This document shows, piece after piece, positions 39,054-45,322 of a stretch of 64,000 nucleotides of DNA (position 1 is its first letter; the number at the start of each line of letters is the position of its first letter). Position numbers and translations under genes: made by a program. The stretch is from a marine bacterium B5-7 (GTDB lineage: Bacteria > Pseudomonadota > Gammaproteobacteria > Arenicellales > CAJQKF01): NCBI GenBank assembly GCA_021604525.1, contig BQJD01000005.1:62001-126000 (forward strand), in the 5' to 3' direction. The notes beneath the pieces are model-generated. The model worked only from the letters and a program-made list of their open reading frames with translations, did no database searches and was not told the DNA's origin.

Positions 39054-40304
39054 ATGCTGATCCTGGCCGTGCTTCGCCCCTTGGGCTACGGCATGACAGT
39101 TTGGCTGTCTGCGGCAGCCGGTTGGGGTGCCGCGGTTTTACTGTGGCCGAAAATCACTGGTAAGCAACGTATTCAGGCGTTGGCAATACTCGCTGTCGGA
39201 ATACTTTTCGCACTGGCAGGCTTCACTCGCGGCGCACCCGTGTCACTACAACAGGCGTTCGGTCAAAATCAGATGATTCTCGCCATGCTGGCAGCAGTCA
39301 GTTTTCTGAAGCTTACCAACCGACCGACTCGTGAGGGTGACGCGATACCGACCGGACCTGGGGCGTTCATTCGAACCCTGGCCGGGGTCCACCTGTTTGG
39401 CGCGGCAATCAACATCACCGCCCTGGTTATCATTGCTGATCGACTCGCAGCTCAGGCCCCATTCAGGCATCTGCAGGCACTCAGTCTGAGTCGCGGTTTC
39501 TGCCTGTCGGTGATGTATTCACCTTTCATTGCCGGTATGGCGCTGGCACTGGCATTATCTCCAGGAGCACGACTCGACATAGTGGCGTTGGCCGGTATTC
39601 CCTATGCGGCAGTTGGCCTGATGTTAACAGCGTGGCACTTAAGTCTTGCGCACGGCGACGAAGTGGCCGTATTCAAGGGATATCCAATCCATCTTGAAAG
39701 CCTTTGGTTTCCAGCGCTGTTGGCCGTGCTTGTCGCCATCGTTCACGGTATGTACCCAAGACTTTCGATATTGCTTCTAATATCGTTCCTGGCACCTGTG
39801 ATGGTGGTTATCATTGTGATCCATGGGGACGGGAGAAGTGCAGGAGTTACGCGTTTGACGCGCCATGTCGAAACAATTCTGCCGCAAATGTCTGGCGAAC
39901 TCCTATTATTCCTCTCTGCCGGAATTCTTGCCGCCGGCTTGACCTCTCTGGCATCAAGCATGGGTAACCCGGTACCGTTCGATGAGTTCGATTGGCTGGC
40001 TGGATCGCTGACCCTGACTACCATTGTTGCCCTGAGCATAATCGGCATACACCCGATCATCTGTGTGTCATTTTTCGCACCATTAATCATCCCGCTTGAT
40101 CCACAGCCGGATCTGGTGGCGCTGGTGTTTGTCATGGGTTGGGCCATCGGCTGTACCGTTAGCCCATTCTCTGGTACTAATCTCACCATGCAGGGTCGCT
40201 ACGGCATCAGCAGTTGGTCGATAACCCTTGGCAACCTCGGCTACTGCGCACTCATGGTGGTAGTCGGCTGGGGCTTCATATACGGCTTCACGCGGTTTGT
40301 CTGA
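39054..40304 (+). CDS. Polytopic membrane protein, possible ion-transporter-type permease
   Basis: 416 residues, about 11-12 hydrophobic helices. Segments such as SSMGNPVPFDEFDWLAGSLTLTTIVALSIIGIHPIICVSFFAPLIIPL and GCTVSPFSGTNLTMQGRYGISSW suggest two inverted halves with helix-breaking SP/SG loops, as in ion-transporter superfamily carriers, but I cannot name a family. The frame stays open upstream to 38967 and already encodes hydrophobic residues before the only normal start codon (ATG 39054), so the first helix may be shortened or the start may be unusual. The upstream neighbour is repeat copy A. Confidence 0.65.
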   Translation: MLILAVLRPLGYGMTVWLSAAAGWGAAVLLWPKITGKQRIQALAILAVGILFALAGFTRGAPVSLQQAFGQNQMILAMLAAVSFLKLTNRPTREGDAIPTGPGAFIRTLAGVHLFGAAINITALVIIADRLAAQAPFRHLQALSLSRGFCLSVMYSPFIAGMALALALSPGARLDIVALAGIPYAAVGLMLTAWHLSLAHGDEVAVFKGYPIHLESLWFPALLAVLVAIVHGMYPRLSILLLISFLAPVMVVIIVIHGDGRSAGVTRLTRHVETILPQMSGELLLFLSAGILAAGLTSLASSMGNPVPFDEFDWLAGSLTLTTIVALSIIGIHPIICVSFFAPLIIPLDPQPDLVALVFVMGWAIGCTVSPFSGTNLTMQGRYGISSWSITLGNLGYCALMVVVGWGFIYGFTRFV

Positions 40305-41280: not shown

Positions 41281-41733
41281 TTATTCCTTACTGCGGTAAT
41301 CATCGTGGCATCCCTTGCACGCACCGCCGAGTTTCTTCAGGGCCGCACCCATATCGCCGTTGTTATCAAAGGCATTGCCGACACCCATCGCGGCATCCTG
41401 AAAGTTCTTCAGAGCCATTGCGAACCCATCCGGATCAGACCAAATTTCAGGTTTCGCTCTGGTTTCGCCAAAGTCTGAACCCTCAGGAAATATATCGCCT
41501 GCAATGGTGCTGATATCGACCAGGCCGCGAACGTGAACACCCATATGCGACGGATCGCCCGCCTTGTTTCCGGCGATAGCAAATAATGCGCCGGTATGGC
41601 CACCAATCACCCTCATTACGTTCTGTCGATACTTGATCACGTCTTCGGTTTCAGCCGCGTTGAGCACCTGTAACGGCAGCAATGCGAAAAGCGCGATAAT
41701 TGCACCGTGTCGGCGAAAATTTGTCATCATCAT
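41281..41733 (-). CDS. Cytochrome c' (class II c-type cytochrome)
   Basis: 150 residues: a signal peptide (cleavage near VLNA-AE) and a four-helix bundle with the single heme motif CKGCH near the C-terminus, followed by DDYR, as in cytochromes c'. Such periplasmic proteins bind NO or protect against it, or carry electrons. A GGAGA site precedes the first of three Met codons. The gene is monocistronic. Confidence 0.88.
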   Translation of the reverse strand: MMMTNFRRHGAIIALFALLPLQVLNAAETEDVIKYRQNVMRVIGGHTGALFAIAGNKAGDPSHMGVHVRGLVDISTIAGDIFPEGSDFGETRAKPEIWSDPDGFAMALKNFQDAAMGVGNAFDNNGDMGAALKKLGGACKGCHDDYRSKE

Positions 41734-41825: not shown

Positions 41826-43928
41826 ATGAACTTATTGAAAGTCTGCCTCGCCATGACCTTTAGCCATCCGCTCTTCAAATATCTCATCCTGGCCGGAATA
41901 CTGGCCCTTTCGCTGTGGATTCGCGTTAACAATTTTGCAACCCATATCGAGTTCGAAGATCGCTATTTCGACGCGGGTCTGCCGCTGATAGTGAATGTCG
42001 ATGGCTACTATTTCCTCGACCTTGCCCGCGATCTACTTACCAACACTTATAGCACGTTCGATACAGAACGAGTGCTTCCGGATGGCACAGCCCGACCCTC
42101 GCCGCCGCCGTTGCTATCGGCTCTGACTGCAGCAATCAGTTGGTTAAGCGGCACCGAACTCGAATGGATCGCCGTCTTTGTGCCGGCGATTCTGGGTGCA
42201 CTGATCGTCATCCCGATGTTTGCATTAGGCTGGGCCTTCGGCGGCTCGCTGGTAGCCGCTATCGCCGCATTGGTTGCGGCATTGTCACCCCATTTCCTGG
42301 TACGCACCTCGCTGGGCTGGTTCGACACCGATTGCGGTGTGGTCGCACTTGCGCTGACCAACACCTGGCTTGTCGTGCGCTTTGCAGATGCAATAAATAA
42401 AGTATCTGACGATGACATTCGCCCGTGGTGGTGGCTCATCGCGACTATTCCGGTGACGATGGTGTTCGTCTGGTGGTGGGAGTTTGGATCGGCACCGGCA
42501 CTGGCATCGGCGTTACTGCCTTTGGCTGCAGCGCTTACCTTGCCCTCTCTGCATAAGAAATCCCGTGTCGTTATCCTGATACTTGGCATCACAACTGCGG
42601 CATTAGTCGAATGGCTTACACCGGGAACCCTGGCCAGTTTCTCGTCAAAACTTTTCTACCTTCTCGAGATCGATGATGATTCGTTTCCTTCTGCTGCAAT
42701 CAACGTTGCCGAACAGCGCAATCCGGATATAACCGAAATTGCGCTTCGATCCATGGCCGGCTGGCCGGGTTTCATTCTCGCACTAATCGGCCTGCTCATA
42801 CTGGTTGTACGTCAACCGCAACGGGCTATCCTGCTGGTATTTCCTTTATCAGTTGCCTTCCTTTCACTAGTTGCTGCGCGTTTCATGATCTTTGTCGGCC
42901 CTGTAGTTGGTCTCGGCATCGGCATGCTGGTGAAAACCATATACGATACCGTCACGGTGCCGAAGCTGAAATGGATTGTGACTGGCACGGTGATCGCAAT
43001 CGTACTAGCTCCGCTCCTGCTACATGCCTACCGCGACGATGCCATCTCTCCCTTGCGTCTGCCGTACCAGGTCGCAGCAATGAAAGAGTTGAATGAACTC
43101 TTACCAGGTGATGCAGCCATCTTCGCTGACTGGTCCCATGGTCATCCACTCAAGTATTTATCGCGTCGAGCAATATTTGCTGATGGCGCTCACCACTCCG
43201 GACGACGCGTGTATGGATTCAGCAATCCACTGGCCATGACCGATGCCCGTCAAGCTGCCAATGCGCTGCGCTTTTATTCAGTCTATGGACCCAAGGGATA
43301 TGACATGGCCCAAAGCCTGCTTGATGCCGACTGGAATACCACCATGAACTTTCTCGCCCGCGGATTCGCAGCAGGTCCCGACGCTGTAGCGGTATTTCCG
43401 GATACTACCGGCATCAACGATCAGGACATCCGCCGGCAATGGGTTGACCTGCTATTTCCGGTTGCGACCCGACCTATCTATATATATCTGGATTTCGACA
43501 AGATTCGTACACCCTGGTACACATTCGGTAGCTGGGATTTCACAAAACGCGAAGGCCAAAAGTTTGCCCACACTCCGATTTTGAATCTCAAGGTCATTGG
43601 TCACACGGTCTTCAACGACCGTGTCATGTTTAACCTCGACACGGGTGATGCGCAGTATCTGGGGCAACAAGTTCCCGTCCGGCGCATCATTGTCCTGAAC
43701 AAGAGTGGGCAACGATATGTGCGAAATATCAGTAAGCTAAAAGGCTGGAACCTCGAGATCGATCTCAATCGCGAAAGTGGTCTGTTGTTCAGTGATAACG
43801 TTGCCGATTCTGTGGGCAGACGATTGTATGCAGGCAATATGGATGTTCGTCCTTACTTCGAACCGGTGCTCGATAATCTCCCTTACGTCGGTGTTTGGCA
43901 GGTGTTACCCGATATGTTGCTGCACTGA
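41826..43928 (+). CDS. STT3/PglB-like oligosaccharyltransferase with altered WWDYG motif
   Basis: 700 residues: about 13 helices and a C-terminal periplasmic domain. STT3 features include Asp59 in the first loop (NVDGYYFLDLARD), DxD at 167-169 (GWFDTDCG), Glu296 in INVAEQRNPD, Arg352 in AARFMIFVG, and the segment PGDAAIFADWSHGHPLKYLS...FADGAHHSG, which aligns with the PglB WWDYG block and its DGG downstream. At 435-439 the motif reads DWSHG, so the sequon-binding Asp is Ser and the first Trp is Asp. The family transfers a lipid-linked glycan to Asn of N-x-S/T; the changed motif implies different acceptor recognition or a different reaction. No glycan-assembly genes are seen in the window. Confidence 0.8.
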   Translation: MNLLKVCLAMTFSHPLFKYLILAGILALSLWIRVNNFATHIEFEDRYFDAGLPLIVNVDGYYFLDLARDLLTNTYSTFDTERVLPDGTARPSPPPLLSALTAAISWLSGTELEWIAVFVPAILGALIVIPMFALGWAFGGSLVAAIAALVAALSPHFLVRTSLGWFDTDCGVVALALTNTWLVVRFADAINKVSDDDIRPWWWLIATIPVTMVFVWWWEFGSAPALASALLPLAAALTLPSLHKKSRVVILILGITTAALVEWLTPGTLASFSSKLFYLLEIDDDSFPSAAINVAEQRNPDITEIALRSMAGWPGFILALIGLLILVVRQPQRAILLVFPLSVAFLSLVAARFMIFVGPVVGLGIGMLVKTIYDTVTVPKLKWIVTGTVIAIVLAPLLLHAYRDDAISPLRLPYQVAAMKELNELLPGDAAIFADWSHGHPLKYLSRRAIFADGAHHSGRRVYGFSNPLAMTDARQAANALRFYSVYGPKGYDMAQSLLDADWNTTMNFLARGFAAGPDAVAVFPDTTGINDQDIRRQWVDLLFPVATRPIYIYLDFDKIRTPWYTFGSWDFTKREGQKFAHTPILNLKVIGHTVFNDRVMFNLDTGDAQYLGQQVPVRRIIVLNKSGQRYVRNISKLKGWNLEIDLNRESGLLFSDNVADSVGRRLYAGNMDVRPYFEPVLDNLPYVGVWQVLPDMLLH

Positions 43929-43930
43929 TT

Positions 43931-45322
43931 TCAACTACCCGTCTTCGGACGACCCAATACCACCGAGGATAAACCGTAGTAACGTGCAAAGCAGGTATTG
44001 GCGAAATGCTTTGGATTACGAGTGATGTCACGCGCAAATCGACGTCCGAGATTGACTTCGCCACCGCGTGTATTAACCCGCTTGCTAAAGTAAAGCGCAG
44101 AGATCGTCAAGTCACCTTCACCTCGTTCAAGTGCCTCGGCAATTCGCTGCTGGCGGGCCAGATCCTGATCGTGAATTTGCTGATATCCGATGAACACATT
44201 ACGCGCATCGAACACAAGAACAGTCAGTACCAGTGCGCAGGCGGTGATCAAGATGCGTCTCGTAAAAGTCGCAACACGCAGACCATCATAAGTAAACAGG
44301 TTGGACGGGAATAGCGCCATTGCTGCGACGATAAAAAAGAACTGGCTTGGAAATGCGACTCGCCCATTGAACACCATAACCGGCGCACCCAGCGTCGCGT
44401 AGGCGCACAGCACACCGGTGGCAATAAAAGCAGCGAAGATTACCAGCCGATCAATGATGTCAGCCGGTCGTGTCAATATGGCAATGACCAGAAAAACGAT
44501 GATCGTAATCAGAACAAGCGTGTCGAAGTGATACAACAAGTGAGTCGTAACGCCGAAAAGCTTGTTTAACATCGGCTCCTGACGGCCAACCACTTCGATT
44601 CGGGCATAGTTGCCAGGCGCAATAATGAGCACAGCCGTCCCGACCACCCAGGATAGATAGCCCGCTTTTGCCCATAACGGCCAACGACCGCCACGTATGA
44701 AATGGACCCCGATAAACAGTAGTGCACCGACCACTGCCACCGCAACCGAGATGTGTTCAAGCCACATACCGCCAAGGAAACACAGCAAGACGTAGCCGAT
44801 CATTTTGAATCGACCAATCGAACTGGAATTTAAATCAAGCGAACAACGAACCAGGGGCAACAGGCAAACACATGCTAACGCGACACCCCAAAGATACTGA
44901 ACCGAACCCGTCTTCCATAGTATCGCCTCACCGAACACCCGCGTGGCGAACCATAGTAAAGCACTAAATATGATCACCCATACGAGGTTACCCATGAGTG
45001 AACGGGCACCAAGCCGGACCAGTAAAAACCCGCCGAGTAACGTGTATATAACGCCGTTTAATATGGCAAGGATTACGACTCCACTACCGTTGCCCGAGAA
45101 AAACAGGTAGTTGGCAAACATCACCGGGTAACGGCCGGACCAGCGCATATATTGCTTGGCCGCTGCCTTAAATGCTCTCATCAGGCTGAAATCATGATAT
45201 GCCCGACATAAGTCGTCAGCGAAAAGTGGAATCAGATAATTGACGACACCGATGTATGCGGCAAAAATCGCCAGCAGAATCAGCGCCGGGACATATGCCC
45301 TTGAAGAAATATTTTTGTGCAT
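43931..45322 (-). CDS. GT-C-like multi-spanning membrane protein (DUF6056/GtrII-like)
   Basis: 463 residues with about ten helices and a long Asp-containing loop after helix one (PLFADDLCRAYHDFSL). ADD in the first periplasmic loop followed by GRYPVMFANYLFF is typical of DUF6056/GtrII-type proteins, which are related to GT-C glycosyltransferases that use polyprenyl-phosphate sugars. It ends two bases from the STT3-like gene and faces it, so the two are neighbours but not co-transcribed. The activity is unproven. Confidence 0.6.
   Translation of the reverse strand: MHKNISSRAYVPALILLAIFAAYIGVVNYLIPLFADDLCRAYHDFSLMRAFKAAAKQYMRWSGRYPVMFANYLFFSGNGSGVVILAILNGVIYTLLGGFLLVRLGARSLMGNLVWVIIFSALLWFATRVFGEAILWKTGSVQYLWGVALACVCLLPLVRCSLDLNSSSIGRFKMIGYVLLCFLGGMWLEHISVAVAVVGALLFIGVHFIRGGRWPLWAKAGYLSWVVGTAVLIIAPGNYARIEVVGRQEPMLNKLFGVTTHLLYHFDTLVLITIIVFLVIAILTRPADIIDRLVIFAAFIATGVLCAYATLGAPVMVFNGRVAFPSQFFFIVAAMALFPSNLFTYDGLRVATFTRRILITACALVLTVLVFDARNVFIGYQQIHDQDLARQQRIAEALERGEGDLTISALYFSKRVNTRGGEVNLGRRFARDITRNPKHFANTCFARYYGLSSVVLGRPKTGS

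What the first reader, a model, noticed from the sequence alone, without database searches (positions are those of the whole stretch)
41826..43928. STT3/PglB-like oligosaccharyltransferase with DWSHG instead of WWDYG
All other STT3 features are in place (Asp59, DxD at 167-169, Glu296, Arg352, DGAHHSG), but the sequon-binding motif at 435-439 has Asp for the first Trp and Ser for the Asp that holds the +2 Ser/Thr. Members of this family outside archaea, Campylobacterota and some Desulfo-type bacteria are little studied. The change predicts a different acceptor sequon, another acceptor residue, or a different transfer reaction.
Basis: partly seen in the sequence, partly recalled or inferred. Interest (0 to 1): 0.65.

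Follow-up and report, generated by a model that had tools for sequence, protein, structure and literature searches.

The report
Protein glycosylation enzyme with altered target-reading site
A gammaproteobacterium carries an intact relative of the enzyme that attaches sugar chains to asparagine in proteins, but the part that reads the target sequence, described as strictly conserved in these enzymes, is rebuilt, and the same part has been lost several separate times in related bacterial enzymes.

Summary
The 700-aa ORF at 41826-43928 is a full-length STT3/PglB-family protein. Its D59, D167/D169, E296 and R352 align with PglB's catalytic residues, and DWSHG (435-439) aligns with WWDYG. No WWDYG occurs elsewhere in it. 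The AlphaFold model matches PglB best (Z 38.4), well above PMT (22) and ArnT (19).

DWSHG is real: a relative in another genome of the family (41% identical) has it too. In 54 bacterial and reference rows the catalytic residues hardly change, but the first Trp is lost several times (D, S, L, F, P, N, M). One origin for all losses is rejected (AU p about 2e-40). The Asp of WWD is also lost in three groups. The opposite pocket wall (MI motif) has an exact two-residue deletion in the window protein and five relatives, and in no canonical row. So the +2 Ser/Thr pocket is remodelled while the catalytic residues stay.

An AglJ-like polyprenyl-phosphate-sugar synthase gene adjoins 18 of 39 family loci; the window genome has one on another contig. 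A monophosphate-linked donor is therefore likely.

Best reading: a probably active oligosaccharyltransferase whose acceptor no longer needs +2 Ser/Thr. Acceptor, donor and activity are inferred. New variant of a known kind.

The parts
41826..43928 (+). STT3/PglB-family oligosaccharyltransferase-like protein, 700 aa (possible alternative start at 41853)
   Evidence: Pfam PF02516 57.9 bits and PF21436 28.8 bits; PDB phmmer to PglB 6e-18; AF2 model against PglB Z 38.4 over 622 residues
42000..42002 (+). D59, equivalent of PglB D56 (EL1, metal and acceptor)
   Evidence: invariant in all aligned rows
42324..42332 (+). DTD, residues 167-169 (EL2 DxD)
   Evidence: first Asp invariant; second is Asp or, in two distant rows, His
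42711..42713 (+). E296 in NVAE (TIxE motif of EL5)
   Evidence: invariant in all rows; role of TIxE from PMC8342417
42879..42881 (+). R352, aligned to the conserved PglB arginine of RFxI
   Evidence: invariant in all rows
43128..43142 (+). DWSHG (435-439) in place of WWDYG; helix starts at W436, so D435 is at the helix N-cap
   Evidence: alignment to PglB; DSSP on the model, helix 436-446; shared with L003/L014
43182..43202 (+). DGAHHSG (453-459), equivalent of the DGGK/DGG loop
43476..43535 (+). Opposite wall of the +2 pocket (MI-motif helix), IYIYLDFDKIRTPWYTFGSW, two residues shorter than in canonical relatives
   Evidence: spacing 20 against 22; alignment
43931..45322 (-). DUF6056 membrane protein, convergent neighbour; role in the system not shown
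   Evidence: PF19528 210 bits; no counterpart next to the gene in L014

Best explanation
The gene encodes a single-subunit, PglB-like enzyme that faces the periplasm and is probably active. Shown: family, fold, tested catalytic residues conserved, WWD motif altered, and the opposite wall of the +2 pocket shortened in the same protein. Inferred: it transfers a lipid-linked glycan to a protein acceptor with the usual OST chemistry (D59, DxD, E296, R352), but it no longer selects the hydroxyl of Ser/Thr at +2. The acceptor rule would then be set by other contacts, such as main-chain pairing with the TIxE-type loop. The former Trp position sits at a helix N-cap and has drifted towards N-cap residues (Asp, Ser, Asn). 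Also inferred: the donor is probably a polyprenyl-monophosphate-linked sugar or glycan made by an AglJ-like GT2, as for AglB of Haloferax, not the undecaprenyl-pyrophosphate donor of Campylobacter.
For: Full-length PglB-type sequence and fold. Catalytic residues conserved in 54 rows while W1 and D3 vary. W1 loss is recurrent: 6 changes on the tree, one origin rejected with p about 2e-40. The second wall of the +2 pocket has an exact 2-aa deletion in 6 rows, all W1-lost, and in no canonical row. WWD and MI form the Ser/Thr pocket in PglB, and WWDYG substitutions inactivate C. jejuni PglB on N-X-S/T (PMC3527161, PMC8342417, PMC7226087). In the six such genomes searched (G000, G856, G857, G858, G860, G861) the variant enzyme is the only family member found. 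An AglJ-like GT2 is adjacent on the same strand in 18 of 39 loci. The window genome holds a strong homologue of it (377.9 bits) in a gene set with DUF354 and an Asn-synthase-type amidotransferase.
Against: No acceptor, donor or activity was observed. In the window and in L014 the GT2 is not adjacent, and L014's genome has no strong homologue (best 91.9 bits in G003). GT2 scores to the AglJ model (about 126-131 bits) are below its cut-off of 325, so the sugar is not known. The same GT2 neighbours WWD-canonical relatives equally often (12 of 26 against 6 of 13), so it does not explain the motif change. The link between W1 loss and the deletion may rest on one or two events: the six rows could be one clade (p 0.12), and the independent-pairs test has no power.
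Confidence: 0.48

Rival explanations
1. The sequon is still N-X-S/T. The pocket is rearranged: the Asp moved from position 3 to position 1 (WWD to DWS) and still binds the +2 hydroxyl.
For: Window, L003 and L008 all carry Asp at position 1 and lack it at position 3. The second Trp is kept in nearly all rows, so part of the pocket survives.
Against: The model puts D435 at a helix N-cap. Other W1-lost lineages have S/T at position 3 with S or P at position 1, so no Asp at all (SWT, SWS, PWS). The MI wall is also two residues shorter.
Confidence: 0.2
2. It is no longer a protein N-glycosyltransferase. It takes the place of the periplasmic GT-C enzyme of a GtrA/GtrB-like three-component system and moves one sugar from polyprenyl phosphate to a glycan, a lipid or another residue.
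For: Several relatives sit beside a GT2 gene, and in the SWxxG lineage the GT2 is fused to a GtrA/DPMS membrane domain. One relative (L098) has a GtrA domain at its own C-terminus. Loss of +2 reading removes the need for a peptide.
Against: The window genome has no GtrA match. The TIxE-type Glu and the whole PglB-type C-terminal domain are kept. PMT and ArnT are much poorer structural matches.
Confidence: 0.2
3. It is a decaying or side-reaction enzyme that only hydrolyses the lipid-linked donor and releases free glycan.
For: OSTs can hydrolyse their donor (noted for AglB in PMC8342417). Acceptor-site residues are those lost. dN/dS for the pair L011/L012 is uninformative (0.34 on 10 differences).
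Against: Full-length ORFs and conserved catalytic residues across deep divergence, and changes in both pocket walls, are unlike decay.
Confidence: 0.1

Closest known systems
PglB of Campylobacter (bacterial single-subunit OST; PDB 3RCE, 5OGL, 6GXC)
   Same: Full-length fold (Z 38.4, 622 residues aligned), D56, D154/D156, E319 and the conserved Arg equivalents, DGG loop, C-terminal globular domain
   Different: 19% identity over the structural alignment; DWSHG for WWDYG; shorter MI helix; scores 104.7 bits against the NCBIfam PglB cut-off of 1300; not in a pgl cluster
Desulfobacterota PglB-like OSTs (WWDHG type, found here)
   Same: Same family; share a branch with the window protein (bootstrap 71, SH-aLRT 96), full-length alignment
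   Different: Keep WWD and the longer MI helix; many sit next to an AglJ-like GT2
AglB of Archaeoglobus and Haloferax
   Same: STT3 family; AglB uses a monophosphate-type lipid donor, first sugar set by AglJ in Haloferax (PMC8342417, PMC3871713), and an AglJ-like gene exists in the window genome
   Different: Weaker structural match (Z about 30.8); WWDYG kept; larger C-terminal part
Three-component (GtrA/GtrB/GT-C) glycosylation systems
   Same: Polyprenyl-phosphate-sugar synthase beside a GT-C enzyme, with a GtrA-type domain in some relatives
   Different: No GtrA match in the window genome; the GT-C here is a full PglB-type protein

Membership tests
STT3/PglB/AglB family (PF02516 + PF21436) | Profile match above the curated cut-off | tested here: met
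   57.9 against 24.5 and 28.8 against 23 bits
STT3/PglB/AglB family (PF02516 + PF21436) | Full-length GT-C plus PglB-type globular domain | tested here: met
   AF2 pLDDT 85; PglB Z 38.4 over residues 12-694
STT3/PglB/AglB family (PF02516 + PF21436) | Catalytic D (EL1), DxD (EL2), TIxE Glu (EL5), conserved Arg | tested here: met
   D59, D167/D169, E296, R352
N-X-S/T oligosaccharyltransferase | WWDYG motif, described as strictly conserved | tested here: not met
   DWSHG at 435-439
N-X-S/T oligosaccharyltransferase | MI(V) motif opposite WWD | tested here: not met
   K-I-R-T-P with a 2-aa deletion
N-X-S/T oligosaccharyltransferase | Transfer of a glycan to Asn | not testable with these tools
   needs glycoproteomics or an enzyme assay
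PglB equivalog (NF050801) | Score above the curated cut-off | tested here: not met
   104.7 against 1300 bits
GtrA/GtrB three-component system | GtrA protein in the genome | tested here: not met
   no PF04138 match in G000; the assembly may be incomplete
AglJ-type donor synthase partner | AglJ-like GT2 in the genome | tested here: met
   G000:C4:199613-200446, 377.9 bits to alignment A3; best NCBIfam model AglJ, 126 bits, below its cut-off of 325

The most novel reading that the evidence does not exclude
A bacterial STT3-family enzyme uses a polyprenyl-monophosphate donor and has given up sequon reading altogether: it glycosylates a residue or molecule outside the N-X-S/T rule, a change that arose several times in bacteria.
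Probability: 0.3. Interest if true: 0.82.

Novelty: new variant of a known kind. Interest (0 to 1): 0.6.

Why it matters
WWDYG is described in the OST papers read here as strictly conserved and as the reason for the N-X-S/T rule. A set of full-length bacterial enzymes that keep the tested catalytic residues but have repeatedly changed the +2 pocket (both walls of it in the window's type) makes the rule's limits testable. Such an enzyme could also widen the set of sites usable for glycoengineering.

Tried and rejected
A direct search of genome contigs with the single protein found nothing; an alignment query was needed. The idea that DWSHG marks one large clade was rejected: first-Trp loss is polyphyletic. 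The idea that the GT2 neighbour goes with motif loss was rejected: 6 of 13 against 12 of 26. The idea that the window's own neighbours (cytochrome c', DUF6056, ProC-like) form a glycan cluster was dropped: L014 has a ProC-like gene nearby but no counterpart of the cytochrome or DUF6056. dN/dS on the only close pair was uninformative. The AU test for the Asp-lost rows alone was not finished. A literature search for variant WWDYG motifs found nothing in the open library, which does not show that none is published.

Full report
OBSERVATION. The ORF at 41826-43928 (+) is open and 700 aa long. Pfam gives STT3 (57.9 bits) and STT3-PglB_core (28.8 bits), both above cut-off. phmmer against the PDB finds C. 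lari PglB at 6e-18, with ADWSHGHP aligned to AWWDYGYP. The genome has no other STT3 match.

FOLD. AlphaFold2 on an alignment of 13 family members gave mean pLDDT 85 and pTM 0.85. Against solved structures the best matches are PglB (Z 38.4, 622 residues), then AglB and eukaryotic STT3 (about 25-31), then PMT (22), ArnT (19) and DPY19 (18). Foldseek agrees. So it is a PglB-type protein, not a general GT-C enzyme.

RELATIVES. In the same order, one genome of the same family has a 41% identical protein, also with DWSHG. Searches of the class, the phylum and Desulfobacterota, plus GTDB contigs, gave 54 usable rows. D59, D167, E296 and R352 never change; the second Asp of DxD is His only in two distant rows. 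Most Desulfobacterota rows read WWDHG or WWDYG. The first Trp is replaced by D (window, L003, L008), S (L010, L011, L018, L021), P (L023), L (L030, L031) or F (L017), and in further loci by N (L039/L098) and M (L121). The Asp at position 3 is replaced by S, T or G in window, L003, L008, L010, L021 and L023. The second Trp is kept in all but two rows (L017, L078).

TREE. In the careful IQ-TREE run the window protein and L003 form a branch with 100/100 support, inside a branch of Desulfobacterota and Pseudomonadota proteins (bootstrap 71, SH-aLRT 96), with PglB outside. W1 loss needs 6 changes and D3 loss 3. Holding all 11 W1-lost rows together is rejected (p about 2e-40). The motif therefore decayed several times.

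THE OTHER WALL OF THE POCKET. In PglB the MI motif faces WWD and contacts the +2 Thr (PMC3527161, PMC7226087). The stretch from VYL to GTW has one fixed length in nearly all rows, 22 residues. It has exactly 20 in window, L003, L010, L011, L021 and L023, all of them W1-lost. (The 20 printed for L031 and the 17 for L072 and L074 are artefacts of the pattern; their aligned spacing is 22.) L098 (NWDLG) appears one residue short. These six rows may be one clade (AU p 0.12), so this may be one event or two, and I do not claim a statistical association. It does show that both walls of the +2 pocket are altered in the window protein. In the model the helix starts at W436, so residue 435 is the N-cap. 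Asp, Ser and Asn, the commonest replacements, are good N-cap residues (general knowledge), which fits release from the need to hold a Trp there.

DONOR SIDE. In 18 of 39 family loci a GT2 gene lies directly beside the OST gene on the same strand. With about 12 such GT2 genes per genome, the chance expectation is under 1% per locus (the count of 12 is, and 3,500 genes per genome was assumed; related loci are not independent). Its best NCBIfam model in most cases is AglJ, below the cut-off. PDB hits include Und-P-Ara4FN transferase and dolichol-P-mannose synthase. In the SWxxG lineage it is fused to a GtrA/DPMS membrane domain. AglJ starts glycan assembly on dolichol monophosphate in Haloferax (PMC3871713), and AfAglB uses a monophosphate donor (PMC8342417). 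The window genome has a strong homologue (377.9 bits) on contig 4, followed by a DUF354 protein and an Asn-synthase-type amidotransferase. It has no GtrA match. The GT2 is equally common beside canonical relatives, so it is a trait of the family, not of the variant.

MECHANISM. The simplest account: glycan transfer with normal OST chemistry, polyprenyl-phosphate donor, and a peptide acceptor held mainly by the TIxE-type loop, with no demand for Ser/Thr at +2. The first half (family, fold, residues, altered pocket) is shown. Activity, acceptor and donor are inferred. The rivals are an Asp relocated to do the same job, a non-protein acceptor, and a donor hydrolase.

VERDICT. A confirmed observation, a new variant of a known kind. 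Its weight comes from the repeated loss of a motif described as strictly conserved, not from DWSHG alone.

Noticed in passing
L100, L101, L102, L104, L106, L108-L110, L112-L115 (beside the STT3 gene): An AglJ-like polyprenyl-phosphate-sugar synthase gene sits next to PglB-like OST genes in many Desulfobacterota, suggesting monophosphate-linked donors for a whole bacterial OST family.
   Followed up: partly
L098:5002-8489 (-): An OST of the same order (NWDLG) is split into two ORFs overlapping by 4 bases, with a GtrA domain at the C-terminus of the second ORF and a GT2 gene downstream; frameshift, split gene or assembly error not resolved.
   Followed up: no
L019:7774-12214 (+): Desulforhopalus singaporensis has two STT3-family genes in tandem, with different motifs (WWDIG and WWDEG).
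   Followed up: no
L017:12131-14245 (+): A PMT_2-type membrane protein lies between the OST (FCDNG) and its GT2.
   Followed up: no
window 43931-45322 (-): A DUF6056 membrane protein ends 2 bases from the end of the STT3 gene, convergent to it; possible GT-C-like protein of unknown role.
   Followed up: partly
window 41281-41733 (-): A cytochrome c' gene (PF01322, 86 bits) is divergent from the STT3 gene.
   Followed up: no
window 39054-40304 (+): A 416-aa hydrophobic, probably membrane-spanning protein with no Pfam match.
   Followed up: no
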